64,000 nucleotides of DNA from Thiocapsa bogorovii. Its GTDB lineage: Bacteria; Pseudomonadota; Gammaproteobacteria; Chromatiales; Chromatiaceae. The DNA lies in contig NZ_CP089309.1 in NCBI RefSeq assembly GCF_021228795.1, positions 806,001 to 870,000 of the forward strand. Direction: 5' to 3'. The translations under genes and the position numbers were made by a program. This document shows positions 867-50,868 of this stretch, piece after piece. Position 1 is the first letter of the stretch. Every line of letters begins with the position of its first letter. The notes below the pieces were generated by a model that did not search any database, was not told the origin of the DNA, and saw nothing but the letters and a program-made list of their open reading frames with translations.

Positions 867-971
867 ATGAAGAAAGACAACATCCTAGACCGCGTTCGCG
901 ACAACGGCGGCGAACCCCTCGGACCTCACGCCGACACGAAACCATCACATGTCCCGCCGGACGCGGTCTAG
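867..971 (+). CDS. Possible small protein of 34 aa (weak)
   Basis: An ATG at 867 lies nine bases after GGAG and opens 34 codons beginning MKKDNILDRVRDNGG. The stop TAG at 969-971 is formed by the outer end of the repeat copy at 886-970, so most of this ORF lies inside the repeat. The start context and lysine-rich N-terminus favour it. The short length and the overlap with a non-coding-looking repeat argue against it. No family is recognised. Confidence 0.2.
   Translation: MKKDNILDRVRDNGGEPLGPHADTKPSHVPPDAV
886..970. repeat. 85-bp inverted-repeat element, copy 1
   Basis: The ends are TAGACCGCGT at 886-895 and ACGCGGTCTA at 961-970, a perfect 10-bp inverted pair. The TAGACC variant is present on both arms. 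It lies directly upstream of folB, so it will be in the folB leader if transcription starts further upstream. Confidence 0.85.
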
Positions 972-976
972 CGAGC

Positions 977-1333
977 ATGGACAGGGTATTCATTCGCGGC
1001 CTGAAGATCGACACCACCATCGGCATCCACGACTGGGAGAGGCGCATCCGCCGACCCGTCGTTTTGGATTTGGAGATGGCGAGCGACATCGGGCGCGGCG
1101 CCGCCACCGATCGCATCGAAGACGCACTGGACTACGAGACCGTCACCCGGCGCCTGGAGCAATTCGTCTCCGAAAGCCGCTTCGAGCTGGTGGAGACGCT
1201 CGCCGAACGCTGTGCGTCCATCCTGATCGACGATCTCGGGATCCCCTGGGTGCGGCTCACGCTGAGCAAGCCAGGTGCCGTCGGCGAAGGCGTGGACGTG
1301 GGTGTGGTGATCGAGCGCGGCGATCCGGGCTAG
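977..1333 (+). CDS. folB: Dihydroneopterin aldolase FolB
   Basis: FolB cleaves 7,8-dihydroneopterin to 6-hydroxymethyl-dihydropterin and glycolaldehyde in cytoplasmic folate synthesis. The 118-residue product matches the family length of about 120. Family features are GIHDWERR near residues 16-23, LDYETV near 51-56 and the C-terminal LSKPGAV with the conserved lysine at 98. The frame stays open upstream, but homology begins at MDRVFIRGL, so 977 is the start. No clear Shine-Dalgarno is visible because the repeat copy ends at 970. The TAG stop lies in the terminal inverted repeat of the next element. Confidence 0.93.
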   Translation: MDRVFIRGLKIDTTIGIHDWERRIRRPVVLDLEMASDIGRGAATDRIEDALDYETVTRRLEQFVSESRFELVETLAERCASILIDDLGIPWVRLTLSKPGAVGEGVDVGVVIERGDPG

Positions 1334-1603
1334 TACCTCGTTCCACCTTATTTTGCATGCTCAGAGCCCCCCCAAAGGCGTCAGGGCAAGGCACAGACCG
1401 CGGGGAATAGTGGGTGCTATTTCCAAGGGCTGTAACGCTGCCCTGGCGCCTTTGGGGGGCTCCCGAAGGGGCGAGGCGAGAAGCGTTCAGCGCCGTTGTT
1501 GCGCGAGCTTGAAAGAGGGTCACTCTTCCTTCACTCGCGCGCCTAGCCGCTGAACACTTCTCGCCTCGCTGAGCACGCAAAATAAGGTGGAACGAGGTAC
1601 TAG
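1330..1603. repeat. 274-bp MITE-like element with 35-bp terminal inverted repeats and two large internal hairpins
   Basis: Positions 1330-1364 and 1569-1603 are inverted repeats of 35 bp with one mismatch, starting CTAGTACCTCGTTCCACC. Both outer ends read CTAG, which could be a target duplication or part of the repeat. Inside are two long imperfect hairpins: 1365-1388 with 1439-1462 (C7AAAGGCG against CGCCTTTG6) and 1471-1492 with 1548-1568 (GCGAGGCGAGAAGCG...). Together they would fold as a three-way junction. No ORF of note is inside, which is consistent with a non-autonomous mobile element. Confidence 0.85.
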
Positions 1604-1613
1604 GGCCGGGAGA

Positions 1614-2279
1614 TCATTTCGCAGGGTTTCCGGTCACCTCGACATCAATGAGGACCTCGTTGCGACGCAGAAAGCCAGGCGTGAAGGGATCATTGTAGTA
1701 GGCATAGACTGCAGGACCTGCGGGCGTCAGGCCGCGGGAGGCCATCCAGGTCCGCAGCGCCGCCTCCTGCTCCGCAATCGCGGCGTCGGAGGTCGAGCCG
1801 CTGAAACGAACCGCCGCGCGTCGCTGGGCAGGGATCTCGCGCAGTCGGACCTCGGATGAACCCGGCGCGGGTAGCTCGTCCAGACTGTACCGGGAAGGCA
1901 TGATGAAGCGAACCGACCAGGCGTCCTCCCCCGTCGGCGATTGGATCACCGGGGCCGTCATGGCGATCCGCTCGACGCGCGTCTCGGGGCGCTGCTGGAT
2001 CACGGGTGCGGTCATCGCGATCTTCTCCCCTTCACGCTCCTTGGCAAAAATGTAGCGCGCGAGCGGCCCGAACCCGGCACCGAGCGCTTCGCGACGGGCG
2101 CCGCTACGCGTCGTCTCCGCGACGACGAGTGCGGGATAGTCCCGGATCTCGAAGGCACCGTCACTCTCCACCGCCACATAGTCGGGCGTCTCGACGTTTT
2201 GAACCACGAAGACGAAGATGGCCATGGCGACGATGCCGAGCGCCAACACCACTCCGACGATCAGTAGGAGTGTCTTCAT
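1614..2279 (-). CDS. SOUL haem-binding family protein, membrane-anchored
   Basis: The 221-residue product has one N-terminal hydrophobic helix (about residues 3-25) followed by a SOUL/HBP-type domain. Recognisable features are FEIRDYPALVV and two copies of a KIAMTAPVIQ/RIAMTAPVIQ motif, the signature of this fold. SOUL proteins bind haem or tetrapyrroles in eukaryotes; the bacterial role is not established. The start at 2279 is chosen because the hydrophobic anchor begins there. The ATG overlaps the stop of the upstream DUF2452 gene (ATGA), so the two are translationally coupled. Confidence 0.85.
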   Translation of the reverse strand: MKTLLLIVGVVLALGIVAMAIFVFVVQNVETPDYVAVESDGAFEIRDYPALVVAETTRSGARREALGAGFGPLARYIFAKEREGEKIAMTAPVIQQRPETRVERIAMTAPVIQSPTGEDAWSVRFIMPSRYSLDELPAPGSSEVRLREIPAQRRAAVRFSGSTSDAAIAEQEAALRTWMASRGLTPAGPAVYAYYNDPFTPGFLRRNEVLIDVEVTGNPAK

Positions 2280-2773
2280 CCCTCGCCCCGCGAGGCCAAG
2301 CCACCGATGCGCAGCAGTTGAGTGACCAGCTCGCCCGTGTCGTCCGGCTGATCGGCTCGGCCTGCCGGTGTCCAGGAATAATCCGTCTCGAGCCGGTAGG
2401 ATCCCAGAAACTCGTAAGGGACCTCGCCGCCCCACTCGGCGGGTGACAGCATCGAGAAAAAGGGCTCACCGACCGCCTTGCGGTAGAGGTGATAGGTCCG
2501 GCCCGGGATGCGTTTGAAGGCACACTGCGCACGCGTCAGCGTCTGTTCCTCCTTGGCATCCGCAAGGACCTTACGCGCCTCTTGTTGAAGCAGCTTGATC
2601 TGGTCGGCGATGACCCGGAGCTTCGCCCCCGTCCGGGCGCCCAACATCGACTCCGCCAGCGCGACCTCTTTGGCCAGCTCGCCGGAATCGAAGGCCGGAG
2701 CCAAACGGCTCACCGGATAGGGCGAACTGTGCGCGGCGCCGCGGTGAAGCACGCCTTTGTCGTCGTTGCTCAT
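2276..2773 (-). CDS. DUF2452 domain protein
   Basis: This is a 165-residue soluble protein of the DUF2452 family, recognised from the N-terminal SSPYPVSRLAPAFD stretch, a central acidic-basic helix (residues about 45-75) and the RIPGRTYHLYRK...FSMLSPAEWG block. The family has no assigned function. It is the first gene of a two-gene operon with the SOUL protein, overlapping it by four bases. It is divergent from the methyltransferase at 2869. Confidence 0.85.
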   Translation of the reverse strand: MSNDDKGVLHRGAAHSSPYPVSRLAPAFDSGELAKEVALAESMLGARTGAKLRVIADQIKLLQQEARKVLADAKEEQTLTRAQCAFKRIPGRTYHLYRKAVGEPFFSMLSPAEWGGEVPYEFLGSYRLETDYSWTPAGRADQPDDTGELVTQLLRIGGLASRGEG

Positions 2774-2868
2774 CTGCGTGTCTCTCTTGTTTTGTCGTCC
2801 GTCCGAGGATCGACGGTATGCCCGGTATATAGTGTCGAGGTGCGAAAAGCACGAACGAGGATTTCACG

Positions 2869-4041
2869 ATGGACGACACGACCGAAAGGAGCGGCGACAC
2901 CGACCGCACGGGGGCGACTGAGGTCTCGGCCCGCCTCGCCGCGCAAATCCGTGACGAGATCGCGGCCGCCGGGGGCCGCCTGCCTTTCGACCGCTTCATG
3001 GAGTTGGCACTCTACGCACCGGGCCTCGGCTACTACGTCGCCGGTGCCGTGAAGCTCGGACGTGACGGCGACTTCGTGACCGCGCCCGAGATCTCGCCAC
3101 TTTTCGGGCGCTGCCTTGCCGTCCAGTGTGCCGAGGTGCTCGATCGACTCGGCGGCGGCGATCTTCTCGAGCTCGGTGCCGGTACCGGCACACTCACGGT
3201 CGAGGTACTCTGCGCCCTGGAGCAACGCAATGCCCTGCCCCGCCGTTACCTGATTCTGGAGCCGAGCCCGGATCTTCAAGAGCGCCAGCGTGCGCTGATC
3301 CAAGAGCGGATTCCGCATCTGGCCGAACGCTGCGCCTGGCTATCCCGGCTGCCGGCGACGCTGCGCGGGGTCGTTCTCGCCAACGAGGTGCTGGACGCCA
3401 TGCCGGTGCATCGCTTCAGCATCCGAGATGACGGCGGGATCGACGAGGTCTTCGTCACCGAGCGCGCCGGCGCGTTCCTCGAGGTCACCGCGCCGGTGCG
3501 TTCACTCGGACTCGCCGACGCCCTCGGCGCACTGCACGCCGAGGGTTTTGCGAAAACGCCGGGGTACAGCTCGGAGATCAACCTGCGCCTGCCGGCGTGG
3601 ATGAAGGCGTTGGGCCGCGCGCTGGATACCGGTCTCGTCCTGCTCGTCGACTACGGCTATCCGCGCCCCGCCTACTACCAGCCCGACCGGACCATGGGGA
3701 CACTCATGTGCCACGTACGCCACCAGGCCCACGGCGACCCCTGCGCCCATATCGGGCTGCAGGACATCACGGCGCATGTCGATTTCACCGCGGTCGCAGA
3801 GGCCGGGGATGCCGCAGGCTTCGAGCTCGCCGGTTTCACGACACAGGCGAACTTCCTGATCGGCTGCGGAATCGACCGAATCCTATCCGAATCACCCGAC
3901 GCCTTCGACCTGACCCCGGGCGCGAAGCAATTGCTCCTGCCGACGATCATGGGGGAGCGGTTCAAGGTCATGGGGCTGACGAAGGGGATCGACGGGGCAC
4001 TGTGCGGATTCTCGATCCGAGACCTGAGTGAACGGCTCTGA
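2869..4041 (+). CDS. MidA/NDUFAF7-type SAM-dependent methyltransferase (COG1565)
   Basis: This 390-residue protein belongs to the family whose mitochondrial member NDUFAF7/MidA methylates a complex I subunit; bacterial substrates are unproven. The SAM-binding loop LELGAGTGTLT is near residues 100-110 and the family block GDFVTAPEISPLFG precedes it. ANEVLDAMPVHRF and LLVDYGYPRPAYY are further signatures. The stop codon TGA (4039-4041) is the first three bases of repeat copy 2. Confidence 0.9.
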   Translation: MDDTTERSGDTDRTGATEVSARLAAQIRDEIAAAGGRLPFDRFMELALYAPGLGYYVAGAVKLGRDGDFVTAPEISPLFGRCLAVQCAEVLDRLGGGDLLELGAGTGTLTVEVLCALEQRNALPRRYLILEPSPDLQERQRALIQERIPHLAERCAWLSRLPATLRGVVLANEVLDAMPVHRFSIRDDGGIDEVFVTERAGAFLEVTAPVRSLGLADALGALHAEGFAKTPGYSSEINLRLPAWMKALGRALDTGLVLLVDYGYPRPAYYQPDRTMGTLMCHVRHQAHGDPCAHIGLQDITAHVDFTAVAEAGDAAGFELAGFTTQANFLIGCGIDRILSESPDAFDLTPGAKQLLLPTIMGERFKVMGLTKGIDGALCGFSIRDLSERL

Positions 4042-4123
4042 ACCGCGTCGGTCACACCCGGTGCAGACGTTGACTCGGTTCGAGCGCGGACCCACTCATC
4101 GGCGTCGGAGTCGACGCGGTCCA
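4039..4123. repeat. 85-bp inverted-repeat element, copy 2 (pair with copy 3)
   Basis: TGAACCGCGTC at 4039-4049 pairs with GACGCGGTCCA at 4113-4123. Its first three bases are the stop of the upstream methyltransferase. A 27-bp A-rich spacer separates it from copy 3. Confidence 0.85.
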
Positions 4124-4150
4124 GAACAAGAAAACGAAAAATTCATCACT

Positions 4151-4234
4151 TGAATCGCGTCCCCGCAACGGCCGCAAGTCCCGCAAGCCGCGAACTCGAT
4201 CTCGACTTTCCGTATCCCAAAAAGACGCGATTCA
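4151..4234. repeat. 84-bp inverted-repeat element, copy 3 (pair with copy 2)
   Basis: TGAATCGCGTC at 4151-4161 pairs perfectly with GACGCGATTCA at 4224-4234. The C-to-T change relative to other copies is compensated on the other arm. The last three bases (TCA) are the stop codon of the leftward VOC gene. Confidence 0.85.
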
Positions 4235-5002
4235 ATGCTGAATAACGGCGAAGATGGCGCCCTGCGGATCGCCGAGGAAGGCGAACCGCCCGACGTTCGG
4301 GACCTCCATCGGATCCATGACGACGCTGCCGCCCAAGCGCTTGGTCGTGTCGATGGCGCGATCGCAATCCTCGACCCCGAAATAGATCGACCAGTTCGGC
4401 GGCATCGAGCCCCATTGGGCATCGAGCTCGATCATCCCGCCGACCTCCTTGCCGTCAAGCTCGAACAGGGTATAACGCCCGTCCATCAAGCTCTTGCTGG
4501 TCCGTGCGGTCCAGCCGAAGAGGTCCTGGTAGAAGCGCGTCGCGGCCTTGGTGTTGCGGGTCTGCAGTTCGCTCCAGCTACGCGCGCCCTCGGTGTTGTC
4601 GATCTCGGCACCGAACAGCGAGCCCGGCTCCCAGAGGCCGAGCACGGCGCCGGTGGGATCCTGAATGAAGGCCATGCGTCCGAGCTGCATCACATCGACC
4701 GCGGGCATCACCAGGCGGCCGCCCAGCTCGACGGCCTGCTCGGCGCTCGCCTGAACGTCCATCACCCGGACATAGCTCGCCCAATAGGGAAAGGCGCCTT
4801 GCTCGGGCGCCATCTCGTAGAGTGCGGCAGCGCGCTTGCCGTTGCGCTTGAGGATGCTGTAAGGCACCTCGTACTCGGTCGCGAGGTCCTCGGAGGTCCA
4901 GCCGAAGATCTCGCCGTAGAAGGTCTTCGCGGCCTCGGGCGCATTGGTCGCCAGATCGACCCAGCAGAAGGTCCCGGCTGGGTAGCTTGTCATCTCGGCC
5001 AT
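4232..5002 (-). CDS. Two-domain VOC (glyoxalase/bleomycin-resistance-like) protein
   Basis: The 256 residues form two tandem vicinal-oxygen-chelate domains (about 8-120 and 132-256). Each begins with FYxxxFGW (TFYGEIFGW, RFYQDLFGW) and ends with AFxxDPxGAxxxL/A (AFIQDPTGAVLGLW, AFLGDPQGAIFAVI). The domain fold is certain but the substrate is not; related proteins are annotated only as VOC family. The start follows the first ATG; MTSYPAGTF three codons later is an alternative. The stop TGA lies in repeat copy 3. Confidence 0.88.
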   Translation of the reverse strand: MAEMTSYPAGTFCWVDLATNAPEAAKTFYGEIFGWTSEDLATEYEVPYSILKRNGKRAAALYEMAPEQGAFPYWASYVRVMDVQASAEQAVELGGRLVMPAVDVMQLGRMAFIQDPTGAVLGLWEPGSLFGAEIDNTEGARSWSELQTRNTKAATRFYQDLFGWTARTSKSLMDGRYTLFELDGKEVGGMIELDAQWGSMPPNWSIYFGVEDCDRAIDTTKRLGGSVVMDPMEVPNVGRFAFLGDPQGAIFAVIQH

Positions 5003-5059
5003 GGGGCGTTCCTCGTTTCGGATCCTGGACTCGGATCCTTCAGGTTGAATGCTGCGAGC

Positions 5060-5671
5060 TCAATCGCCATCCGGATCGCTGCGCCGGCCTTTGCGGCCGG
5101 TCAAGCGGCGCGGCGGCGGATCGCCGTCCATCATCATGAGCATGCGCTCCTCCTCGGCGAGACGCTTGGCCGCGAGATGTTTCTCTTGGCGCACCCGGGC
5201 GGTATATCCGAGCGCGGCACCCCCTGCCGTCGTCAGGGTGAGCAGCCCGAGCGTGACGAACTGAGCCAACATCATGGCCACACCGAGACCGACGGCACCG
5301 CCGACCACGACACCGGTCTTGAGGTTCGCACCCATCGAACCCCGGTGCCGGACCTTGGCCTGGAGGACCGCGTTGTCGCGACCGACCTTGGCACGGATCT
5401 GCTCGGCCTTGACCCGGATCTTCTCGCGCTCCTTGGAAAAGCGCTCGCTCACGCGCGAGACGGTACGATGGCGGTCCGCCGCAACGATGGTATTGAACCA
5501 AAAGGCGACCAACGTGCCGATCGAGCCGCCCAAAAGCAGGAAGAGCGGCCAGGTCGTGTGCCAATCGGTGCTCAAGGCCGTGTACACCAGGAGACCCGTG
5601 ACACCCTGGAGTAGAAAGATCCCGATCAGGAAGCGGACCAAGCTACCCACACCGGTTGGAATGATATTCAT
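5060..5671 (-). CDS. Unrecognised inner-membrane protein with basic, coiled-coil-prone middle
   Basis: I do not recognise a family. The 203-residue product has two N-terminal hydrophobic segments (about residues 12-30 and 42-62) and a strongly charged helix-forming stretch rich in Arg/Lys/Glu (about 65-105). A glycine-rich hydrophobic hairpin follows (about 113-150), then a charged tail with a MLMMMDGD run and a basic end. A GTG at 5686 would add five residues; the ATG at 5671 is preferred. It may be co-transcribed with the lipoprotein gene at 5705-7162. Confidence 0.7.
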   Translation of the reverse strand: MNIIPTGVGSLVRFLIGIFLLQGVTGLLVYTALSTDWHTTWPLFLLLGGSIGTLVAFWFNTIVAADRHRTVSRVSERFSKEREKIRVKAEQIRAKVGRDNAVLQAKVRHRGSMGANLKTGVVVGGAVGLGVAMMLAQFVTLGLLTLTTAGGAALGYTARVRQEKHLAAKRLAEEERMLMMMDGDPPPRRLTGRKGRRSDPDGD

Positions 5672-5704
5672 CGTCTTAGTCTGCACTCCCTGGCGTCGAG
5701 CGGG

Positions 5705-7162: not shown

Positions 7163-7455
7163 GATGTGACCGTCTCCGATATCGGGTCAGTAGGAATCCA
7201 CTCGGCGCCGGACTGCGCGCCGGCGACGCTCTTGTCCATGCCCGCGTGCCTCAGCGCAGAGGGGACCGCGCGGTATGCAGCATAACGGATCGCGCGGACC
7301 GATCCGATGCAATTTCGATCCGTTGCGATGCGAAACCGGTTGTCGATCGACCCGTGCGCCCCGACGTCCGGACTGCTCGGAGTGCGACATTGCATCGCGT
7401 ATGGCCGGAACATGCGAGCATTGCAGCCCCGATTCACCCCCGAACGGCAAAGACC

Positions 7456-8058
7456 ATGTATCCGATCGACAAACCCTACTCGGAAGCCTGCGAAGAAAAC
7501 AAGCGCCCGATTCTCGACGTGATCGGCCCGCTTTTTCAAGAGGCCCGTCACCTTCTCGAGATCGGAAGCGGCACCGGTCAGCATGCGGTCTTCTTCGCCG
7601 CTGCCATCCCCCATCTGATCTGGCAGACCAGCGACTGCGCGCACAATCTTCCGGGAATCCGGGCCTGGCTGGACGATGCCGCCCTGCCCAATCTACCGCC
7701 CGTCCGCGTGCTCGACGTGACCGGCCTGTGGCCGGAGGAGCGCTTCGATGCCGTCTTCAGCGCCAACACCGCACACATCATGTCGGAATCGCAGGTGGAG
7801 GCAATGTTCGAGGGCGTCGGCCGAGTCCTGATCGATGGCGGGCACTTCGTGCTGTACGGGCCCTTCAACGTTGGCGGTCGCTACACCAGCGAGAGCAACG
7901 CACGCTTCGACGCCATGCTGCGCTCGCGCGACCCCGCGATGGGCATCCGCGACCTCGACCTTCTGATCCGAATGGCCCGCGACAACGGCATGGAGCTGAT
8001 CGCGGATCACCCGATGCCGGTCAACAACCGCACCTTGGTTTGGCAGCGTATCCCTTAA
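7456..8058 (+). CDS. DUF938 SAM-dependent methyltransferase-like protein
   Basis: The product is 200 residues. The DUF938 signature is strong: KPYSEACEENKRPIL at the N-terminus, the SAM-binding loop LLEIGSGTGQHAVFFA near 34-49, AVFSANTAHIMS in the middle and a GPFNVGGRYTSESNARFD block later. The substrate is unknown. The start at the ATG of MYPIDKPY is set by family alignment; the frame is open far upstream. The stop TAA (8056-8058) is the outer end of repeat copy 4. Confidence 0.9.
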   Translation: MYPIDKPYSEACEENKRPILDVIGPLFQEARHLLEIGSGTGQHAVFFAAAIPHLIWQTSDCAHNLPGIRAWLDDAALPNLPPVRVLDVTGLWPEERFDAVFSANTAHIMSESQVEAMFEGVGRVLIDGGHFVLYGPFNVGGRYTSESNARFDAMLRSRDPAMGIRDLDLLIRMARDNGMELIADHPMPVNNRTLVWQRIP

Positions 8059-8140
8059 ACCGCGCCCGGCGCGGTCTGCGATGTCTGCGGACAGGAACAG
8101 CCGCGGCAGACTTAACGACCGTTGGAGACGGCGCGGTTTA
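8056..8140. repeat. 85-bp inverted-repeat element, copy 4 (pair with copy 5)
   Basis: TAAACCGCGCC at 8056-8066 pairs perfectly with GGCGCGGTTTA at 8130-8140. Both arms carry the GCC/GGC variant instead of GTC/GAC. Its first three bases are the stop of the DUF938 gene. A 21-bp A/T-rich spacer follows. Confidence 0.87.
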
Positions 8141-8161
8141 AGATATCGAAAAGTTAAATTC

Positions 8162-8245
8162 TAAGCCGCGTCTCCCCAAAGGTCGGAAAAGACCCTAAGC
8201 CCGACCCTCGATGAAAACAACGCATTTCACTCGGGACGCGGTTTA
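8162..8245. repeat. 84-bp inverted-repeat element, copy 5 (pair with copy 4)
   Basis: TAAGCCGCGTC at 8162-8172 pairs with GACGCGGTTTA at 8235-8245 with one mismatch. It is not attached to a stop codon. It lies upstream of the DUF427 gene. Confidence 0.85.
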
Positions 8246-8391
8246 GTCACAATCCAGAAGAAAGCTGAGCACCACACTCTACGTCGTAATGGTTGTGGTC
8301 GTCGTTGTCGAGAACGACAACAACCAAAACGAAAGATATTCTCTCGGCGAGTCGTTTTCCTTATTGATGAACCATTTCCTGGTGAGATCCC

Positions 8392-8955: not shown

Positions 8956-8963
8956 CGGAACCG

Positions 8964-15712: not shown

Positions 15713-15795
15713 TAAACCGCGCCCTGCCGTCGCCGACCGACGGCTGCGACGCCGAGAGCACCTCTGGCCAACGCCCGGACGCCGAGCGCGGTTTA
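15713..15795. repeat. 83-bp inverted-repeat element, copy 6
   Basis: TAAACCGCGCC at 15713-15723 pairs with AGCGCGGTTTA at 15785-15795. The last three bases are the trpS stop. This copy sits between two co-directional genes (trpS and scpA) of one run, so it cannot be a simple strong terminator if the run is one transcript. Confidence 0.85.
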
Positions 15796-17010
15796 GCTCA
15801 TCACCAGGGACATCGCGTGCCGAACCTCTTCAAGCGTCTCGTGTGCAACATCGCGTGCACGCTCGCAGCCCTCGTTGATGACGTTGCGCAGGAGCTCCGG
15901 CTGGGCCGAGTACTCCCTGGCGCGTTGCTGCATCGGCATCAGCTCGGCGAGCACACCGTCGATCACCGGCTGCTTGCAGTCCAAACAGCCGATGCCGGCC
16001 GAGCGGCAGCCCTGCTGCACCCAGTCGCGAACCTGATCGTTCGAATACACCAGGTGGAACTGCCAAACCGGGCACTTTTCCGGATCGCCCGGATCGGTCC
16101 GGCGCACCCGCGCGGGGTCGGTCGGCATGGTCCGCAGCGCCTTCTCGACATCGGCAGGCTCGTCGCGCAAGGCGATGGTGTTACCGTAAGACTTGGACAT
16201 CTTTTGCCCGTCCAGCCCCGGCATCTTCGAGGCCTTGGTCAGCAGCGGCATGGGTTCGGGCAGGATGACCCGTCCGCCGCCCTCGAGATACCCGAGCAGT
16301 CGCTCGCGATCGGCCAGGGTGATATTGCCCTGCCCCTCCAGAAGCGCATGGGCCACGCTCAATGCCTCCTGATCGCCTTGCTCCCGATAGCTGCGCCTCA
16401 GCCGATCGAAGAGTTTGGCGTTCTTCTTGCCCATCTTGCGCTTGGCCTCCTCCGCTTTCTCCTCGAAGCCGGGCTCGCGACCGTAAATGTGATTGAAGCG
16501 CCGCGCGACCTCGCGCGTCAGCTCCACGTGGGCGACCTGATCCTCTCCGACCGGGACCTGCCCGGCCTTATACATCAGGATGTCCGCGCTTTGGAGCAGC
16601 GGGTAACCGAGGAAGCCGTAGGTCGCAAGATCGCGCTCCTTGAGCTTCTCCTGCTGGTCCTTGTAGCTCGGCACCCGCTCCAGCCAGCCCAGAGGCGTAA
16701 TCATGGAGAGCAGAAGATGCAGCTCGGCATGCTCCGGAACCCGCGATTGGATGAAGAGTGTCGCCGAGCCCGGATTGATCCCGGCGGCCAACCAGTCGAT
16801 CACCATCTCGCGAGTGCTCGTCGGGATGATCGAAGGATCCTCGTAGTGCGTCGTCAAGGCATGCCAATCGGCGACGAAGAAGAAACACTCGTATTCGTGC
16901 TGAAGCTCCAGCCAGTTCTTCAGGACACCGTGATAGTGTCCGAGATGGAGACGGCCCGTAGGACGCATCCCGGAGAGGACGCGCGAGTGGTGTGCGGAGA
17001 CGGAAGTCAA
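15793..17010 (-). CDS. trpS: Tryptophan-tRNA ligase TrpS, long form
   Basis: TrpS charges tRNA(Trp). The class I signatures are HLGH at residues 22-25 and KMSKS at 270-274. At 405 residues it is about 70 longer than E. coli TrpS. The extra length is a charged insert at about 178-255, between FNHIYG and LLTKASKMPG, in front of the KMSKS loop. Comparable long forms exist in other proteobacteria. It is preceded by the site-2 protease gene 18 bases away, and its stop is the end of repeat copy 6. Confidence 0.94.
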   Translation of the reverse strand: MTSVSAHHSRVLSGMRPTGRLHLGHYHGVLKNWLELQHEYECFFFVADWHALTTHYEDPSIIPTSTREMVIDWLAAGINPGSATLFIQSRVPEHAELHLLLSMITPLGWLERVPSYKDQQEKLKERDLATYGFLGYPLLQSADILMYKAGQVPVGEDQVAHVELTREVARRFNHIYGREPGFEEKAEEAKRKMGKKNAKLFDRLRRSYREQGDQEALSVAHALLEGQGNITLADRERLLGYLEGGGRVILPEPMPLLTKASKMPGLDGQKMSKSYGNTIALRDEPADVEKALRTMPTDPARVRRTDPGDPEKCPVWQFHLVYSNDQVRDWVQQGCRSAGIGCLDCKQPVIDGVLAELMPMQQRAREYSAQPELLRNVINEGCERARDVAHETLEEVRHAMSLVMS

Positions 17011-19529: not shown

Positions 19530-20276
19530 ATGCTCCCGAAGGTCGACCTCAGCGATATCGCGGATGAGCTCAAGCGACTCGGCGACGAGATCCAGCGCGC
19601 CTACGACGACTCCGAGCAGACAGTCGAGCCCGCACCGCAGGTGTCGCTGAGCGGATTCGCGCAACTGCTCGACGCCGTGCGCGCCGGCGAGGCCGAACCG
19701 CGCGGCGAGTCAGCACAGGTGTCGCGCCCGGTCACCGGCGCGGAACCCGAGGCCCTGCTCGAGCACGGACTCGGCCTGCTTCGCGAGCTCGGCGATGTCG
19801 CGCGGCGTCTGAGTCTCGAATCACAGGCGCAAGCGGTCGAGGTCCTCGCAGTCCCTTTCGCATGCTGGATGTTGCGCCGAGGCGGCGAGCTCCAGCACCC
19901 GGAGGATGTCGTGAACGCCCTGGCCATACTCGCGAATCGGTTGAGCCGACCCGAGGAGCTCGCCGAGCTTTACGGCCTGATGGGCGAGATTGCAGAGGGC
20001 ATCGGCGCAGACCGCGTCCAGGGTATGGACCCGACCGACCCGACCGATCCTTGGCTCGTCCTCCTGATCAACCGAGGGATCGTCGCCACGCGCAGCCAGC
20101 AGCCCGCCCTGATGGAAGAGTCCTTCGCCGCTATCGGCGAGCAACTGCCCGACCACGCACCCAATTTCTTCCGCGAGGGCATGGGACAGATGGAAGCGCT
20201 GAATTACCCTGCACCTGTCCGCGAGGTGATGCAGCGTTACTTCGACAAGTGGTGCAGCGGTCAGCGTTTACACTGA
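19530..20276 (+). CDS. Conserved-looking soluble protein of unknown function
   Basis: I recognise no family. The 248-residue acidic protein is largely alpha-helical, with a helical first third (about 5-35), a proline-containing linker and an all-helical body. A PTDPTDP run is near residue 170. There is no signal peptide or membrane segment. CAGGAT lies nine bases before the ATG. The stop TGA is the first three bases of an extra repeat arm at 20274. It converges with the AAA+ gene. Confidence 0.75.
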   Translation: MLPKVDLSDIADELKRLGDEIQRAYDDSEQTVEPAPQVSLSGFAQLLDAVRAGEAEPRGESAQVSRPVTGAEPEALLEHGLGLLRELGDVARRLSLESQAQAVEVLAVPFACWMLRRGGELQHPEDVVNALAILANRLSRPEELAELYGLMGEIAEGIGADRVQGMDPTDPTDPWLVLLINRGIVATRSQQPALMEESFAAIGEQLPDHAPNFFREGMGQMEALNYPAPVREVMQRYFDKWCSGQRLH

Positions 20277-20367
20277 ACCGCGCTGAACCGCGTCGGAGGT
20301 ACATGCATTCTTTCGAGAATTCTTTCGGCGTGGCGCAGTCCACTACCGCCGGCGGAGACGCGGCTCA
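20274..20367. repeat. Inverted-repeat element, copy 7, with a duplicated left arm (pair with copy 8)
   Basis: TGAACCGCGTC at 20284-20294 pairs with GACGCGGCTCA at 20357-20367, giving an 84-bp unit. A further TGAACCGCGC (20274-20283) directly precedes it as a tandem copy of the left arm. The extra arm supplies the stop of the upstream gene. A 20-bp spacer with a T5 run follows. Confidence 0.82.
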
Positions 20368-20387
20368 GAGATTATTTTTCGATCTTC

Positions 20388-20475
20388 TAAACCGCGTCCG
20401 GCGCCGACGCGCAGACACGGTTCCGACCGTCGCCTCAGATTGCAACATCGCCGGACAGCACGGGGACGCGGTTTA
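20388..20475. repeat. 88-bp inverted-repeat element, copy 8 (pair with copy 7)
   Basis: TAAACCGCGTC at 20388-20398 pairs perfectly with GACGCGGTTTA at 20465-20475. The last three bases are the TAA stop of the leftward AAA+ gene. Confidence 0.88.
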
Positions 20476-21366
20476 GCCGCCGATAATGTGTTTTTGAAGG
20501 CGATACAACAACGTATCTCGCGTCAACCCGAGCAGACGCGCGGCCCGACTCTTATTTCCGCCGGCCAGCGAGAGGGCTTGGCGGATCAGCTCCGCCTCGA
20601 GGTCGTTAAGATCGATCCCGTGCGGCGGCAGCGAGAAACCGATGTCCTTCTCCGACTGCGGCGCACCCCGTATCACCTCGCCGGGTAGGTTCTCGGGACC
20701 CACCTCGGTGCCCGGAAGGAGGATCACGAGACGCTCGCACAGGTTGGCGAGCTCGCGCAGATTGCCCGGCCACGTATACCGGCGCAGCAAGCGCTCCGCA
20801 CCGGATTTAAGCCGCGGCGGATCGAGCCGATGCCGCGCCGCCGCGGTCGTGATGAAGTGCTGCGTCAGCGCAGGGATATCGAGCGCCCGGTCACGCAAAG
20901 GCGGGACCTCGAGCGGAACGACACAGAGGCGCAGATACAGATCGCGCCGAAAGACCCCTTCCTGTACGAGCCGATCGAGGTCCAAAGCCGAGGCCGCGAT
21001 GACCCTCAGCCTGACTCCGGAGCGAGACCCGTCGCGAGGGGCGTCCTGCGCAACGATGGCATGCAGCAGTCGCGCCTGATCCGCCGCATTCAGCTCACCG
21101 ACCTCGTCCAGGTAGAGGGTCGCCGGCGCATCCTGCGCAAACGCAGCCAAACAGCCCTCGAGCGCTTCGGGCGGCGCTCCCGCGCAGGCGAGCACGCCGA
21201 AGGGACCATCCCGACGTGCGCTGCACGCATGGATCTCGCGCGCCAGGGTCTCTTTTCCCGTACCGGGCTCGCCCAACAGGAGAACCCCCACATCCGTAGC
21301 GGCAACCAGCGACAGGGCATTACGAAGTCGGGTAAAGGCGGGGGACTGGCCAATCAGAGTCGTCAT
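20473..21366 (-). CDS. NtrC-like AAA+ protein lacking the GAFTGA sigma-54 loop
   Basis: The 297-residue protein consists of an NtrC-type AAA+ domain and a Fis-type helix-turn-helix (NKSRAARLLGLTRDTLLYRL) with no receiver domain. Walker A is GEPGTGKE (residues 32-39), Walker B is LYLDEVGE (84-91), and the arginine and sensor II region is FRRDLYLRL plus YTWPGNLRELA. The sigma-54 contact loop GAFTGA is absent: Walker A to Walker B is 16 residues shorter than in NtrC. It may be a DNA-binding regulator that does not activate sigma-54 promoters. It is coupled by ATGA to the upstream membrane-protein gene. Confidence 0.88.
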   Translation of the reverse strand: MTTLIGQSPAFTRLRNALSLVAATDVGVLLLGEPGTGKETLAREIHACSARRDGPFGVLACAGAPPEALEGCLAAFAQDAPATLYLDEVGELNAADQARLLHAIVAQDAPRDGSRSGVRLRVIAASALDLDRLVQEGVFRRDLYLRLCVVPLEVPPLRDRALDIPALTQHFITTAAARHRLDPPRLKSGAERLLRRYTWPGNLRELANLCERLVILLPGTEVGPENLPGEVIRGAPQSEKDIGFSLPPHGIDLNDLEAELIRQALSLAGGNKSRAARLLGLTRDTLLYRLQKHIIGG

Positions 21367-33393: not shown

Positions 33394-33738
33394 ATGACCC
33401 AAACCGCCGTCCGCACCCAGACCCCGCCCAAACATCGACCCCTACCCGTCGACGAGGACGGATTCCTGATCGACCCGACGGATTGGAACGCGGGAATGGC
33501 CCGTGTCATGGCGGAGCTCGACGAGATCGGGCCGCTTGGCCCCGACCATTGGTCCATCATCTACTACCTTCGCGAGCACCGCATGACCTACGGCTCCATC
33601 CCGCCGGCGTCGCAGATCTGCCGCACCCACGGCATGAAGCGCGATGCAGTGCATCGGCTCTTCGGATCCTGCCGCCAGGCGTGGCGCATTGCGGGTTTAC
33701 CGCATCCCGGTGATGAAGCCTTGAGCTATATGAGCTAA
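33394..33738 (+). CDS. DsrC-like protein lacking the redox cysteines (RspA-type)
   Basis: The 114-residue product has the DsrC fold pattern LPVDEDGFLIDPTDWN and LREHRMTYGSIPPASQI. The C-terminal arm reads AWRIAGLPHPGDE, not KWGGLPKPTGCV. The position of CysB is a tryptophan, CysA is replaced, and the protein runs nine residues beyond. The only cysteines are elsewhere. Such DsrC paralogues have been called RspA and proposed to be regulatory. AAGGA precedes the ATG. The stop TAA is the start of repeat copy 9. Confidence 0.85.
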   Translation: MTQTAVRTQTPPKHRPLPVDEDGFLIDPTDWNAGMARVMAELDEIGPLGPDHWSIIYYLREHRMTYGSIPPASQICRTHGMKRDAVHRLFGSCRQAWRIAGLPHPGDEALSYMS

Positions 33739-33819
33739 ACCGCTTCTGGAGCGGGATGCATCGGGCCGGGAGTGATCAGCTACGGCAGAAACCAGACCTG
33801 TCGTCGCTGACGCCGTTTA
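33736..33819. repeat. 84-bp inverted-repeat element, copy 9 (degenerate)
   Basis: TAAACCGCTTC at 33736-33746 pairs with GACGCCGTTTA at 33809-33819 with two mismatches. The first three bases are the stop of the DsrC-like gene. Confidence 0.7.
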
Positions 33820-41768: not shown

Positions 41769-41819
41769 TCGCGCCTTGCCACGGGGACGACCTTCTTCAA
41801 GAGATCCCCGGAACCTCAT

Positions 41820-42873: not shown

Positions 42874-43053
42874 GAGAATATCTCCTGATCGCCTGACACA
42901 AGCATCTTAGCAAAGTGGTGACATTTTGTCACCTCACGCGATTGCGACGCTGCGCCGGCTTCGGCGATCGATGGAGCTGCGAAACATCCGTGGACCTCAC
43001 GGCGTCCGTTTCGTCGATGATCCTGTCTGCGGACTCGACTCCTTTGTTCGGGT

Positions 43054-43737: not shown

Positions 43738-43746
43738 GTGGACTGA

Positions 43747-44903: not shown

Positions 44904-45043
44904 CTCGGTTCTGCCGGACAAATCCGCAATCTAAGGCAGAATCCGGATGAGGTCCAATGGTGGAGGCAGATTCAACCGCCGCGATGCGATGCGATGCAGC
45001 CCGCCCGGCCGAACCGCCGGGCGGACCGAGTCGGTCCCGCTCC

Positions 45044-45814: not shown

Positions 45815-46202
45815 GATTCTTCCTCCCGACGGTTGTCGTGTCTACCGACAGGGGTTGCCGGAACGGCGGCGAGGATCTTCACGGCATCGCGAAAGGATGC
45901 GTTTGAAGGTGGCTCGCTGGTCTGGATAAGATCCGATGCACTGCCTCCCGGAAACCCGATCGGCGCGGACTTCAAAACCAACTTTTGCGCTTGGTCTTCA
46001 GTGAGAGACTAGTCGCGGGAGGATTGGTTCGCAAGTCACGTCGATGACGTGTATCGATGATTCGAGTCGCTGACCTGGCTCGACAGCGATTACGACTCCG
46101 GGAAACGCCGGTTGAGACAGGCGTCCGGACAGGACGTCGCCCAGAGGCGTCCCGGCCTCGCGGCGTGAAAAACCGGCGGGAATCCTTTCCCGCCGTGCGC
46201 GG
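45815..46202. other. Intergenic region upstream of DUF2189 and downstream of degP (388 bp)
   Basis: No gene is supported. It contains a perfect CACGTC-GAT-GACGTG palindrome at 46037-46051 and the degP terminator at 46168-46195. Confidence 0.5.
46168..46195 (-). terminator. Intrinsic terminator of degP
   Basis: On the minus strand a 9-bp stem CGGCGGGAA/TTCCCGCCG (loop of four) is followed by GG and a T5 run, just past the degP stop at 46203. Confidence 0.8.
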
Positions 46203-47675
<1,473 letters not shown>

Positions 47676-47802
47676 CGTTGTCTCCAATGAATTGACTTGT
47701 TCAATCGAAATCGCTCGATTCTCCCACGTGCTCCGACGCCGCTCGCCTCTGCGATGCCGTCGGCTGATCGCTCGATCGCCGACGCGGCAATCATCCGCGA
47801 GC

Positions 47803-48579
47803 TTACGCCTCGGCCCAACCGCGCCACCGGTAGACCCACCATCCGACATACTCCTTCAGGGCACGCGTGCTGTCCGACAAGGCTTCGGCGTCCGGGAGCC
47901 AGCGGATGAGATGAGCAGGCTCGGGCATCACCTCGAAATCGGTCGCCGCCGGCACCGCATCGATCCCGGCTGCGCGAAAGGTCGCCAGTGCGCGCGGCAT
48001 GTGCAGAGCCGAGGTCACCAAAAGGACGCGATCGAACCCCTCCGCGCTTAGGATCTCGCGAGTATAGAGCGCGTTCTCGCGGGTGTTTCGACTGCGTCCC
48101 TCCAGCAGGATCGCAGCGGACGGCACACGCAGATCGGCGAGGAAACGCAGCATCGCATCGGCCTCGCTGCGGCGCTCGCCCGCCCAAGGCATGGAGCCAC
48201 CCGAAACGATGACGCGCGGGGCCTTCCCCGCACGATAGATCCGCGCCGCGTGCCAAACCCGGTCCGAGGCCCGCCCCAGATCCGGGTCCGGCCAAGCGGG
48301 CGGGCCGCCGCGAATGCCGCCTCCGAGGACGACCACGGCATCCGCCTCCGGCAAGACGTCCACCGGCTCATGCGGGAACCGGCCTTCCAGCGAGAGGCGC
48401 AAACCGTCCGAGACGATCGGAATCGACCAGAAACCGAGCCAAAGGATCCCGACCGACAAGGCAAAAAGCCCCGATCGGCGCCGGCCCGCGACGAGAAGCA
48501 CAAGCGCCAACAGCGCCAGTACGATCGAGAGCCCGAGCGGATAGGCCAGTTGGCTGAGCACCTTATCGAGGTAAAGCAT
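47803..48579 (-). CDS. YdcF/ElyC-like DUF218 membrane protein
   Basis: The 258-residue protein has two N-terminal helices (about 10-30 and 36-55) and a periplasmic DUF218 domain. Signatures are ADAVVVLGGGIRGG, a DRVWHAARIYRAGKAPRVIVSGG stretch, RNTRENALYTREIL and LLVTSALHMPRALATFR. E. coli ElyC affects lipid carrier use in envelope synthesis; the function here is inferred by family only. It lies upstream of degP on the same strand. Confidence 0.88.
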   Translation of the reverse strand: MLYLDKVLSQLAYPLGLSIVLALLALVLLVAGRRRSGLFALSVGILWLGFWSIPIVSDGLRLSLEGRFPHEPVDVLPEADAVVVLGGGIRGGPPAWPDPDLGRASDRVWHAARIYRAGKAPRVIVSGGSMPWAGERRSEADAMLRFLADLRVPSAAILLEGRSRNTRENALYTREILSAEGFDRVLLVTSALHMPRALATFRAAGIDAVPAATDFEVMPEPAHLIRWLPDAEALSDSTRALKEYVGWWVYRWRGWAEA

Positions 48580-48638
48580 GAGGTCGATAGCTCCGATCGC
48601 CGGGATCGTTCGGCCGATCCGGATCCGTGCTCAGGCGG

Positions 48639-49541
48639 CTAACCCAAATAACCGGGTACCACGGCGTCGACATCGGTCGCCACGATGCCGAGCCGATCGA
48701 GTCCATCCTCTCGACAGAGGCTGTCGATCTGAAGGGACAGATAGTTATCCGTACTGAAGGGTTTACCGGGAAGCTTCTCGAAGATGCGCGCCTGAAGTCG
48801 GGCGAGACGATCGCTCAGGGCGACCACTCGGACCTTGCGCCCGATCCGGCTTCCCGTGTAGATCAGGATATCGCGCAGTGCGAAGGTGCGCGGTCCGCAA
48901 AGCTCATAGATCTGTCCGCGGCTCGCCGGATCTTGGAGCGTGCGAAGCATGGCGGTCGCGACATCGCCGACATAGACCGGGGCGAATCGCGCGTCGGCAC
49001 AGGCGAGCGGGAATGGCCCCGGAAGCAAACGCAGCAGCGATGCGAACCGATTGAAGAGTCCATCGCCCGGCCCGAAGATGACCGAGGGACGAAACACCGT
49101 CACCGCCAATCCCTGTTCGGCCGCCGCCAAGGCGACCGCCTCGCCCCTGCCCTTGCTGCGTAGATACTCGCTTGGACCGGCCGGGTCCGCATTCAGCGCA
49201 CTCATGTGCAGGTACCTGTCGATGCCGGCGGCGAGCGCCGCGCGTGTCGTCGACTCGACCATCCCGACATGGGTTTGCTCGAAGGTGCGCCCGCCCCCCT
49301 CGTTGAGGATGCCGAGCAGATACACCACCGCGTCGCATCCGACCATCAGATCGGCCAAACCGGCTTCGTCCCATTGGTCGAGCTGCACCAGCTCGCAGCC
49401 CGGAACGAGCCGTAGGTGTCGATAGCGATGGGGATGGCGCGTCGGCACACGGGTCCGATATCCGGCGCCGGACAGGCGATTTAGGAGATGTCGACCGACG
49501 AAGCCGGTTCCCCCAATGACACAAATGCACGGATGTCTCAT
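48639..49541 (-). CDS. NDUFA9-like NAD(P)-binding epimerase family protein
   Basis: The 300-residue atypical SDR has the nucleotide motif GGTGFVGRHL (residues 10-19), YLLGILNEGGGRTFEQTHV, a HMSALNADPAGPSEYLRSKG segment in place of the YxxxK active site, and RPSVIFGPGD. This is the subgroup related to mitochondrial NDUFA9, often annotated complex I NDUFA9 family in proteobacteria. No catalytic role is established. It is first in the run to ydcF-like and degP. Confidence 0.88.
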   Translation of the reverse strand: MRHPCICVIGGTGFVGRHLLNRLSGAGYRTRVPTRHPHRYRHLRLVPGCELVQLDQWDEAGLADLMVGCDAVVYLLGILNEGGGRTFEQTHVGMVESTTRAALAAGIDRYLHMSALNADPAGPSEYLRSKGRGEAVALAAAEQGLAVTVFRPSVIFGPGDGLFNRFASLLRLLPGPFPLACADARFAPVYVGDVATAMLRTLQDPASRGQIYELCGPRTFALRDILIYTGSRIGRKVRVVALSDRLARLQARIFEKLPGKPFSTDNYLSLQIDSLCREDGLDRLGIVATDVDAVVPGYLG

Positions 49542-49588
49542 GATGTCGTCGTGACTCGTCTGGGGCGTCTCGGCGCCCGTGGCCAGAC

Positions 49589-49671
49589 TAAACCGCGTCC
49601 AGGTGTGATGCTTTCACCCCGAGGAGCGCACGGCCTCGCCGCCACGTGCGGCGTTGGCGAGACGCGGTTTA
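49589..49671. repeat. 83-bp inverted-repeat element, copy 10
   Basis: TAAACCGCGTC at 49589-49599 pairs perfectly with GACGCGGTTTA at 49661-49671. This copy lies between divergent genes and ends no ORF. Confidence 0.87.
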
Positions 49672-49894
49672 GGAAACTCAAAAAGCCATGAAGCTCGCTG
49701 CGCCTGTGGATTGACTCTGCCGTGACCCGGGCGAGTCCGTTAGCCGGATGCGATCGAACCCGGCCGGGCGACATTGGCACAAGTCATGCGGGACGCGCAA
49801 TGCGCGATTCATCCATTCGTTGCGGAGTCATGTCGAAGACAGCCCTGGCCGCCCTTCAGCCATGCCGGCCTTCGATCGTTCAGGACGGAATCCA

Positions 49895-50680
49895 GTGCTC
49901 GAGCTCCTAGCCTATCTCGCCATCGGCGCCGCCTCCGGAATGTTGGCCGGCCTTTTCGGCGTGGGCGGCGGCGTGATCGTCGTCCCGGCACTGATCCTGC
50001 TGTTCACACAGATCGGCATGGGATCGGAGTGGATCCCGCATCTCGCCGTCGGAAGCTCACTGGCCGCCATCGTCGGGACGGGAGCGGCGTCGACCTATGC
50101 ACATCACCGGCGCGGTGCCGTGCGCTGGGATCTGGTCGCCCGACTGGCACCCGGCATCGTCCTCGGCGCCTGGCTCGGCGCCGCCTTGGCCGGGATCATC
50201 CCCGAACTTTGGCTGACTCGTCTCTTTGCCGTCTTTCTGACCTATGTCGGGATCCGAATGCTGATTCCCCGGAAGATCCATCTCGAGCACACCCTGCCCG
50301 GCTCTCCGGGGATGTGGGCGGCGGGCGGAGGCATCGGGACCCTCTCGGCGCTGGTCGGGATCGGCGGCGGCACCCTGACGGTGCCTTTTCTCGGAAACCG
50401 CGGAATCGACATGCGCAAGGCAGTCGGGACCTCGGCCGCCTGCGGTTTGCCGATCGCGCTTGCCGGCGCCATCGGCTTCATGGTCGTCGGCTGGGGACGC
50501 GAGGGATTGCCCGAGGCCAGCACGGGTTTTGTCTACTGGCCTGCAGTCGGGGCCATTCTGCTCGCCAGCATGCCCACCGCCCCCCTCGGCGCATCCCTTG
50601 CGCATCGTCTCCCGGTTGCCCTCTTGAAGCGGCTGTTCGGGGTGTTTCTGCTGCTGATCGCCCTGCGCTTGGCCTATTGA
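49895..50680 (+). CDS. TauE/SafE-type membrane permease
   Basis: The 261-residue protein has eight or so helices with the two TauE/SafE half-motifs: GMLAGLFGVGGGVIVVPALI near residues 14-33 and TLSALVGIGGGTLTVPFL. The family exports sulfur-containing organic anions or sulfite; the substrate is not predictable. The GTG at 49895 has AGGACGG eight bases upstream; an ATG at 49862 would add 11 residues and lacks one. The stop TGA opens repeat copy 11. Confidence 0.88.
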   Translation: MLELLAYLAIGAASGMLAGLFGVGGGVIVVPALILLFTQIGMGSEWIPHLAVGSSLAAIVGTGAASTYAHHRRGAVRWDLVARLAPGIVLGAWLGAALAGIIPELWLTRLFAVFLTYVGIRMLIPRKIHLEHTLPGSPGMWAAGGGIGTLSALVGIGGGTLTVPFLGNRGIDMRKAVGTSAACGLPIALAGAIGFMVVGWGREGLPEASTGFVYWPAVGAILLASMPTAPLGASLAHRLPVALLKRLFGVFLLLIALRLAY

Positions 50681-50766
50681 ACCACGTCCGGGTGTCCGAT
50701 ATGCGAGGCTCGCCGACTTGGGCTCGCGTCCGATCGATCCGCAAAGCTCGGAGTCGACGCGGTTCA
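50678..50766. repeat. 89-bp inverted-repeat element, copy 11 (pair with copy 12)
   Basis: TGAACCACGTC at 50678-50688 pairs with GACGCGGTTCA at 50756-50766 (one mismatch). The first three bases are the TauE stop. A 20-bp spacer with a T6 run follows. Confidence 0.85.
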
Positions 50767-50786
50767 AGAGTTTTTTGGATTGATTC

Positions 50787-50868
50787 TGAACCGCGTCTTG
50801 CCCAGGTTCTTTAGATCCTCGACGGCGCTTCCAACGACGATATGGCGGATTGCGCCGGACACGGTTCA
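50787..50868. repeat. 82-bp inverted-repeat element, copy 12 (pair with copy 11)
   Basis: TGAACCGCGTC at 50787-50797 pairs with GACACGGTTCA at 50858-50868 (one mismatch). The last three bases are the stop of the leftward gene at 50866-51489. Confidence 0.85.

What the first reader, a model, noticed from the sequence alone, without database searches (positions are those of the whole stretch)
886..50868. Twelve-copy family of ~85-bp elements: conserved inverted ends, constant-length but non-conserved interior
Copies at 886-970, 4039-4123, 4151-4234, 8056-8140, 8162-8245, 15713-15795, 20284-20367, 20388-20475, 33736-33819, 49589-49671, 50678-50766 and 50787-50868 share 11-bp ends T(A/G)AACCGCGTC...GACGCGGTT(C/T)A. 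Interior length is always 60-67 bp, but the interior sequences do not match by eye. Known mobile repeats (MITE, REP, BIME) normally conserve the whole unit. Conserved ends with fixed spacing and free interior imply selection on the ends and on distance, or generation of each interior by an unknown process. The class is not one I recognise; novelty is inference.
Basis: partly seen in the sequence, partly recalled or inferred. Interest (0 to 1): 0.85.

Follow-up and report, generated by a model that had tools for sequence, protein, structure and literature searches.

The report
Mini-transposons that end genes
The repeats are small mobile DNA elements, related to a known transposon family, that often sit exactly on the stop codons of purple sulfur bacterium genes, supply the stop codon themselves, and fold its surroundings into a short stem that seems to be kept while the rest drifts.

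Summary
In detail: 12 copies at the stated places, 82-89 bp, far above chance. By origin they are not a new class but an IS630-type MITE family of Thiocapsa and some other Chromatiaceae, roughly 680-1060 units in this genome by density. Two clean empty sites show a TA target duplication; 30 of the first 36 nt of one unit equal the end of an IS630 element in a relative. 50 of 101 interiors have recognisable kin; 51 have drifted too far.

The striking part: the unit's first triplet, T(A/G)A, is often the stop codon of the upstream gene. 38 of 101 units start exactly on a stop at their 5' end, 2 of 101 at the 3' end. Orthologues in element-free species mostly end at the same codon (69 of 96). Insertion into the TA of TAA/TAG followed by the element's A rebuilds TAA. 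The unit's ends pair over 11-12 bp, stop codon included. Arms diverge half as fast as interiors with compensatory changes (P=0.001), so the stem is probably selected; function untested. Closest in anatomy: REPINs; in origin: RUP.

The parts
886..970 (-). single unit between a divergent gene (1-558, not identified here) and folB; 5' triplet TAG; not at a gene end
   Evidence: orthologous unit aligned in G001, G002, G003, G004, G008, G010 and not in G005, G006, G009; folB by Pfam PF02152
4039..4123 (+). first half of dimer; first triplet TGA is the stop codon of gene 2869-4041 (+)
   Evidence: gene is PF02636 methyltransferase-like
4124..4150 (.). 27-bp AT-rich dimer spacer
4151..4234 (-). second half of dimer; its 5' triplet (complement of 4232-4234) is the TGA stop of gene 4232-5002 (-)
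   Evidence: gene is glyoxalase-like
8056..8140 (+). first half of dimer (subfamily B); first triplet TAA is the stop codon of gene 7456-8058 (+)
   Evidence: DUF938 gene
8141..8161 (.). 21-bp AT-rich dimer spacer
8162..8245 (-). second half of dimer (subfamily C-like), faces no gene end
15713..15795 (-). single unit; its 5' triplet TAA (15793-15795) is the stop of gene 15793-16968 (-)
   Evidence: class I tRNA synthetase (W/Y) gene; orthologous units in G002, G004, G008, G010, a shorter remnant in G001
20274..20283 (+). partial tandem copy of the arm (TGAACCGCGC) carrying the stop codon of gene 19530-20276
20284..20367 (+). first half of dimer, 10 nt after the stop codon of gene 19530-20276
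20368..20387 (.). 20-bp AT-rich dimer spacer
20388..20475 (.). second half of dimer; right end supplies the TAA stop of gene 20473-21366 (-); interior too drifted to orient reliably
   Evidence: orientation called '+', 0.95, against the gene context
33736..33819 (+). single unit; first triplet TAA is the stop of gene 33394-33738 (+)
   Evidence: DsrC-like gene
49589..49671 (+). single unit between divergent genes, not at a gene end
50678..50766 (+). first half of dimer; first triplet TGA is the stop of gene 49895-50680 (+)
   Evidence: TauE/SafE gene
50767..50786 (.). 20-bp AT-rich dimer spacer
50787..50868 (-). second half of dimer; its 5' triplet TGA is the stop of gene 50866-51423 (-)

Best explanation
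A family of IS630-derived MITEs. Shown at two sites: a ~190-bp inverted dimer inserts at a TA and duplicates it; its tips read AACCGCG(T/C)C inwards. When the TA belongs to a TAA or TAG stop codon, TA plus the element's first base A makes TAA, so the protein is unchanged. Inferred: insertions inside genes are lost, so stop codons and other non-coding TA sites accumulate copies; single units are left by recombination or decay of dimers. Shown: each 85-bp unit can pair its two ends into an 11-12 bp stem that includes the first triplet, and its arms evolve about half as fast as its interior with an excess of compensatory changes. Inferred (about 50%): the stem is kept because, in the mRNA, a hairpin that begins at the stop codon shields or delimits the 3' end after the last ribosome leaves; the interior only needs to be a loop, so it drifts.
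For: TA duplication at two clean empty/filled pairs (G010 vs G001; targets C-TA-A and T-TA-G). End match to an IS630 element: 30 of 36 nt with the G006 end; beyond the arm, score 36 vs shuffled maximum 19; transposases are IS630 by NCBIfam, 155-178 bits against cut-off 100. Stop codon: 5' end at distance 0 in 38 of 101 units, 3' end in 2 of 101 (Fisher 3e-11); in other Chromatiaceae 44 of 90 clusters have an end exactly on a stop, 0 of 3 clusters that passed the filter in other taxa. Same stop position against orthologues in the three element-free genomes 69 of 96 pairs (88 within 3 residues; 42 genes), control genes 175 of 320 (249). Outer flanks Y-TA-R in 24 of 25 dimers. Stem: pairing ends sharply after 11 bp inward; compensatory pairs 8 observed vs 2.06 permuted, P=0.001, one comparison per locus, 38 loci; TGA-type units at stops 17 of 21, TAA-type 31 of 74 (Fisher P=0.0025).
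Against: No autonomous partner with these ends was found in the own genome, G002 or G008, so what moves young copies is unknown; ends were checked at only 30 of 48 DDE_3 matches in the genus, and with a pattern allowing one mismatch. Subfamily A and B units do not match IS ends clearly above shuffling beyond the arm, and the inner 3' arm has no counterpart in the IS. Four of six printed insertion sites were too diverged to show a boundary. About half of clusters are not on stops: exactly on a stop are 36 of 76 own clusters and 44 of 90 elsewhere, against 18 of 59 non-coding Y-TA-R sites in element-free species (P=0.053 and 0.028); in Thiobaca only 3 of 11. Old copies are not significantly more often at stops than young ones (29 of 51 vs 19 of 50, P=0.07). 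Arm rate is similar at stops (0.085) and away from them (0.091), though pairing is better kept at stops (559/610 vs 308/366). No consistent T run follows the stem. No expression data.
Confidence: 0.85

Rival explanations
1. REPIN-like elements moved by RAYT (Y1) transposases: inverted ends with fixed spacing, mobilised as single-stranded hairpins.
For: Same anatomy as REPINs as described in PMC3116915 (passages); 14 PF01797 matches in the own genome.
Against: Clean TA duplications; ends match IS630; of 13 own RAYT loci with 2 kb flanks 1 holds complete units, of the 12 loci fetched two do, no more than the general density gives; G006 and G009, with no exact-arm copy, also have RAYT genes.
Confidence: 0.05
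2. The arms are not selected: plain neutral decay of a MITE, with conserved arms only because I searched for arms.
For: Copies were found by their arms; subfamily structure alone gives some arm covariation (two halves of the dimer differ at arm base 10); a first alignment gave a rate ratio of 0.97, though it misplaced arms; arm rates at and away from stops are alike.
Against: Pairs of relatives not chosen for arms give ratio 0.50 over 24 loci; compensatory changes exceed permutation; TGA/TCA forms are mostly old and concentrated at stops.
Confidence: 0.3
3. A structured regulatory RNA or riboswitch-like family with a conserved fold and variable sequence.
For: Conserved outer stem with covariation; 5' end on the gene side.
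Against: Interior folds no better than shuffled (z mean 0.09 sense, -0.38 antisense); the window has no Rfam match at gathering threshold except one tRNA; hundreds of copies.
Confidence: 0.05
4. Stop codons are actively targeted (not just tolerated) by the transposition machinery, for example through translation or transcription at gene ends.
For: Clusters exactly on stops: 36 of 76 own, 44 of 90 elsewhere, against 18 of 59 non-coding Y-TA-R sites in element-free species and 93 of 484 in the own genome. With a 20-nt tolerance 48 of 76 own.
Against: On exact distance the excess over element-free species is slight (P=0.053 and 0.028); loss of insertions that harm promoters or operons would do the same; a second, unrelated element also has 6 of 15 full copies on TAG stops.
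Confidence: 0.1

Closest known systems
RUP of Streptococcus pneumoniae (IS630-Spn1-related MITE)
   Same: Short, non-autonomous, ends similar to an IS630 family element, TA target (PMC2229807 and PMC3049150, passages)
   Different: RUP is described as a simple 107-bp element of high sequence conservation; here inverted dimers of two different halves, an extra inner arm making each half a hairpin, strongly drifted interiors, and the end triplet acting as host stop codon
ERIC (RU-1) and Correia (NEMIS) elements
   Same: Small repeats with TA termini and TA target duplication; ERIC reported to affect stability of the upstream mRNA in an orientation-dependent way (PMC2229807 and PMC2759123, passages)
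   Different: Sequences not compared by tool. In the passages seen, RU-1 at a gene's 3' end removes the normal stop and lengthens the protein (PMC2759123); here the stop is rebuilt in place
QMITE2 of Coxiella burnetii
   Same: A MITE at a gene's 3' end that touches the stop codon and offers a stable stem (PMC5896051, passages)
   Different: There it extends the protein by 33 residues in one strain and follows a stop made by an indel in another; a single case, not a genome-wide rule in the passages seen
REPINs of Pseudomonas fluorescens
   Same: Conserved inverted ends, fixed spacing, less conserved spacer, compensatory changes, mostly extragenic (PMC3116915, passages)
   Different: REP palindromic core and RAYT linkage not found here; TA duplication and IS630 ends present
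MIRU of mycobacteria; REP near stop codons in E. coli
   Same: Repeats touching stop codons, or hairpins just after stop codons affecting expression (both recalled, no paper seen)
   Different: Not compared here

Membership tests
IS630-related MITE | Short, no transposase gene, many dispersed copies | tested here: met
   82-89 bp units / ~190 bp dimers, 154 exact-arm copies in the genome
IS630-related MITE | TA target duplication | tested here: met
   Two clean empty/filled site pairs; outer flanks Y-TA-R in 24 of 25 dimers
IS630-related MITE | Terminal repeats shared with an IS630 family element | tested here: met
   Subfamily C end: 30 of 36 nt with the G006 IS end, well above shuffling for G006 and G079 ends; transposases IS630 by NCBIfam. 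Subfamilies A and B not clearly above shuffling beyond the arm
IS630-related MITE | Mobilised in trans by that transposase | not testable with these tools
   No partner with these ends found in own genome, G002 or G008
REPIN / RAYT | REP palindromic core within each end | tested here: not met
   By reading the copies: the arm holds no palindrome longer than CGCG
REPIN / RAYT | Association with a RAYT gene | tested here: not met
   1 of 13 own RAYT loci (2 kb flanks) and 2 of 12 loci fetched hold complete units; the 14th own match was not fetched
BIME | Mosaic of REPs in alternating orientation | tested here: not met
   Inverted dimers yes, REP core no (by reading)
Intrinsic terminator | G+C-rich hairpin followed by a T run | tested here: not met
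   Downstream sequence is A and T rich without a consistent T run (T 0.19-0.44 per 5-nt bin)

The most novel reading that the evidence does not exclude
A transposon family has been turned into a genome-wide 3'-end part: in these bacteria hundreds of genes end in a transposon-derived hairpin whose first paired bases are the stop codon itself, kept by selection on pairing alone (even the switch TAA to TGA is matched on the other strand), so that a terminating ribosome and the 3' stem exclude each other.
Probability: 0.4. Interest if true: 0.75.

Novelty: new variant of a known kind. Interest (0 to 1): 0.55.

Why it matters
It shows a simple way for a mobile element to live harmlessly at very high copy number: target TA, start with A, and land in stop codons, which it rebuilds. 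It also offers a natural experiment with many loci on whether a hairpin that begins at the stop codon matters for mRNA fate, since old copies appear to keep little but pairing. No paper on such repeats in these bacteria, or on MITEs that rebuild stop codons in place, turned up in my searches (listings, with passages of six papers read); most subscription papers are not in that library.

Tried and rejected
RAYT/REPIN origin: looked for RAYT linkage, not found. Structured RNA: interior folding no better than shuffled; Rfam on the window gave only a tRNA. Terminator: no consistent T run. IS630 elements of the own genome as parents: their flanks lack these ends. A first pass at coding context used a strict score and called only 20 of 84 units' 5' ends in frame (3' ends 2 of 84); the gene finder replaced it. 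First orthologue comparison by interior-only alignment with ungapped arms gave equal arm and interior rates; 49 of 163 pairs had 6 or more mismatches in one arm, and nearly all of the 14 most divergent that I looked at were slipped alignments. It was replaced by gapped alignment (144 of 163 pairs re-located, 19 dropped) and by pairs not chosen for arms. An earlier version was too permissive (60% identity, element-free species included) and is not used. The stop-position test was first counted against all orthologues in which my scan found no unit (137 of 183, control 561 of 785); but 35 of the 87 such pairs outside the three element-free genomes still begin with arm-like remnants, so I report the element-free subset. 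The 12th stem pair: outer and inner flanking bases match in 82 of 101 units; in dimers the outer base is genomic, so part of this may be target choice rather than compensation; it is 22 of 30 in young and 19 of 20 in old dimer units. The +6 offset of 8 units looks like a duplicated TRAACC hexamer; not resolved. Copy number was first put at 850-1060 with one empty block left out and corrected to 680-1060. The paper PMC12320835 was opened for REP effects near stop codons; passages gave nothing on that.
Full report
What is there. The exact-arm pattern occurs 154 times in it and never in the reversed control. Of 56 genomes searched (own included) 11 have a match: in the genus 9 of 11, namely the own with 154, seven with 96-322 and G005 with 1, while G006 and G009 have none; elsewhere in the family G028 has 56 and G031 one. 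A stricter pattern is found in 10 of 116 family genomes. A capped scan of named genomes lists Thiocapsa, Thiobaca, Thiocystis, Lamprocystis, Thiodictyon and scattered single hits elsewhere. By density (12 units in the 64-kb window; 12 in five 20-kb blocks placed at round numbers, one of them empty) the genome holds roughly 680-1060 units.

Anatomy. Orienting copies by their interiors shows subfamilies (my labels A, B, C) and a weak common motif near one end. Pairing of the two ends runs over 11 bp, with clear covariation at arm positions 2 and 10, and stops abruptly inwards: position 12 pairs less than by shuffling. Of 76 clusters, 51 are single and 25 are dimers with a 20-29 bp spacer; 23 are in '+ -' order and 2 were called '++'.

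The stop codon. A simple gene finder trained on the genome's own long frames was used on 604 kb of the own genome: the window, 22 blocks of 20 kb chosen knowing that they hold exact-arm copies, and 5 at round numbers. Choosing blocks with copies does not bear on where copies lie relative to genes. Of 115 candidate units, 14 scored below 28 of 33 and were set aside (5 of these lie inside predicted genes). Of the other 101 none lies inside a gene; the 5' end, fixed by interior sequence alone, lies exactly on a stop codon in 38 and at +6 in 8; the 3' end exactly on a stop in 2. In the window 8 of 12 units are exactly on stops, 20284 follows a duplicated arm piece 10 nt after a stop, and 886, 8162 and 49589 are not at gene ends. 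Counting clusters, 36 of 76 own ones have an end exactly on a stop, 44 of 76 at 0 or +6, and 17 of 25 dimers exactly. In loci from named Chromatiaceae found by the exact-arm scan, 44 of 90 clusters have an end exactly on a stop (Thiocapsa 32 of 66, Thiocystis 6 of 7, Thiobaca 3 of 11, unnamed Chromatiaceae 3 of 4, Lamprocystis and Thiodictyon 0 of 1 each); of 14 loci in other taxa only 3 clusters passed the filter, none on a stop. Against orthologues in the three element-free genomes the protein ends at the same residue in 69 of 96 pairs (88 within 3 residues; 42 genes with an element), control genes in 175 of 320 (249). So the element rebuilds the stop rather than cutting or extending the protein.

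Insertion. Two clean pairs of filled and empty sites show the mode. In G001 a gene ends C-TAA-GGGG; in G010 the same place reads C-TA-[AACCGCG...CGCGGTT]-TA-AGGGG. In a second, T-TAG-GCGA becomes T-TA-[dimer]-TA-GGTGA. The duplicated target is TA, and TA plus the element's first A makes TAA even from TAG. Outer flanks are Y-TA-R in 24 of 25 dimers. Four other sites printed were too diverged for a clear boundary.

Origin. The genus has 48 DDE_3 matches. At the 30 loci fetched, a pattern allowing one mismatch found related ends on both sides of the transposase only in the element-free genome G006: a 1277-bp IS with a split transposase. Searching that transposase in 116 family genomes finds relatives in 5, including three identical-scoring copies in G135, and none at 1e-20 in the own genome, G002, G005 or G008. 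A subfamily C unit shares 30 of its first 36 nt with one G006 end; beyond the arm the match scores 36 against a shuffled maximum of 19. Subfamilies A and B give no clear match beyond the arm. NCBIfam names the transposases IS630. The inner arm that closes each unit into a hairpin is not in the IS ends looked at: it seems to be the MITE's own gain.

Selection. 50 of 101 copies have recognisable kin, 51 do not, yet both keep a stem with mean pairing probability about 0.9. Since copies were found by their arms this alone proves little. Comparing orthologous copies in two relatives, neither chosen for its arms, arms differ at 0.096 and interiors at 0.192 per site over 24 loci, and pairing is kept in 811 of 893 pairs. 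Taking one most-diverged comparison for each of 38 loci, 8 compensatory pairs stand against 2.06 after permutation (P=0.001). The TGA...TCA form is mostly old (3 of 59 younger units have it) and sits on a stop in 17 of 21 cases against 31 of 74 for TAA (P=0.0025). I read this as TAA to TGA changes tolerated with the partner change, that is, selection on pairing; subfamily history could explain part. Against a purely stop-linked function: arm rates hardly differ between copies at stops (0.085) and elsewhere (0.091), and old copies are not significantly more often at stops than young ones (29 of 51, 19 of 50, P=0.07), though pairing is better kept at stops, 559 of 610 against 308 of 366 (counts not independent).

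Targeting or tolerance. Of non-coding Y-TA-R sites outside elements, 93 of 484 in the own genome and 18 of 59 in element-free relatives are stop codons. Clusters exactly on stops are 36 of 76 (P=0.053 against 18 of 59) and 44 of 90 (P=0.028). The excess is slight on this measure, larger with a 20-nt tolerance (48 of 76, P=0.0002) or against the own genome's share. Loss of insertions that hurt promoters or operons could produce it, so I do not claim targeting.

Against the literature (all from passages, not whole papers). The closest by origin are RUP and other TA-flanked small repeats (PMC2229807, PMC3049150), by anatomy REPINs (PMC3116915), whose authors already stress spacer length, hairpin and compensatory change. 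MITEs touching gene ends are known: ERIC/RU-1 fused to a 3' end lengthens the protein (PMC2759123), and QMITE2 does so in one Coxiella strain (PMC5896051). MITEs of Thiomargarita were looked at too (PMC4853749). I saw no account of stop codons rebuilt in place across a genome; searches.

Verdict. A real, ordinary-by-origin but unusual-by-placement element: a new IS630-type MITE family whose tips double as stop codons and whose stem outlives its interior.

Noticed in passing
window 1330-1605: A second, apparently unrelated MITE of about 276 bp (ends CTAG-TACCTCGTTCC ... GGTA-CTAG) sits in the TAG stop codon of folB (977-1333). Of 15 full copies examined in the genome (92-100% identical) 6 have an end exactly on a TAG stop; one further copy was partial.
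   Followed up: partly
window 20274-20283; G004 locus L067 near 2326: Tandem partial copies of the arm on the stop-codon side (10-11 nt, up to three in G004) and, in 8 units at offset +6, what looks like a duplicated TRAACC hexamer; may be footprints of repeated insertion or slippage.
   Followed up: no
window 4039-4234: The same site holds different elements in different species: a drifted dimer here, a young-looking A:B dimer in G004, a single unit in G003, which suggests turnover at fixed sites.
   Followed up: partly
window 886-970: Unit just upstream of folB's start codon, kept at the same place in six other species of the genus; could have been taken over as a 5' leader element.
   Followed up: no
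own genome, 14 PF01797 matches: Many RAYT-like (Y1) transposase genes not linked to this family; their own REP partners were not sought.
   Followed up: no
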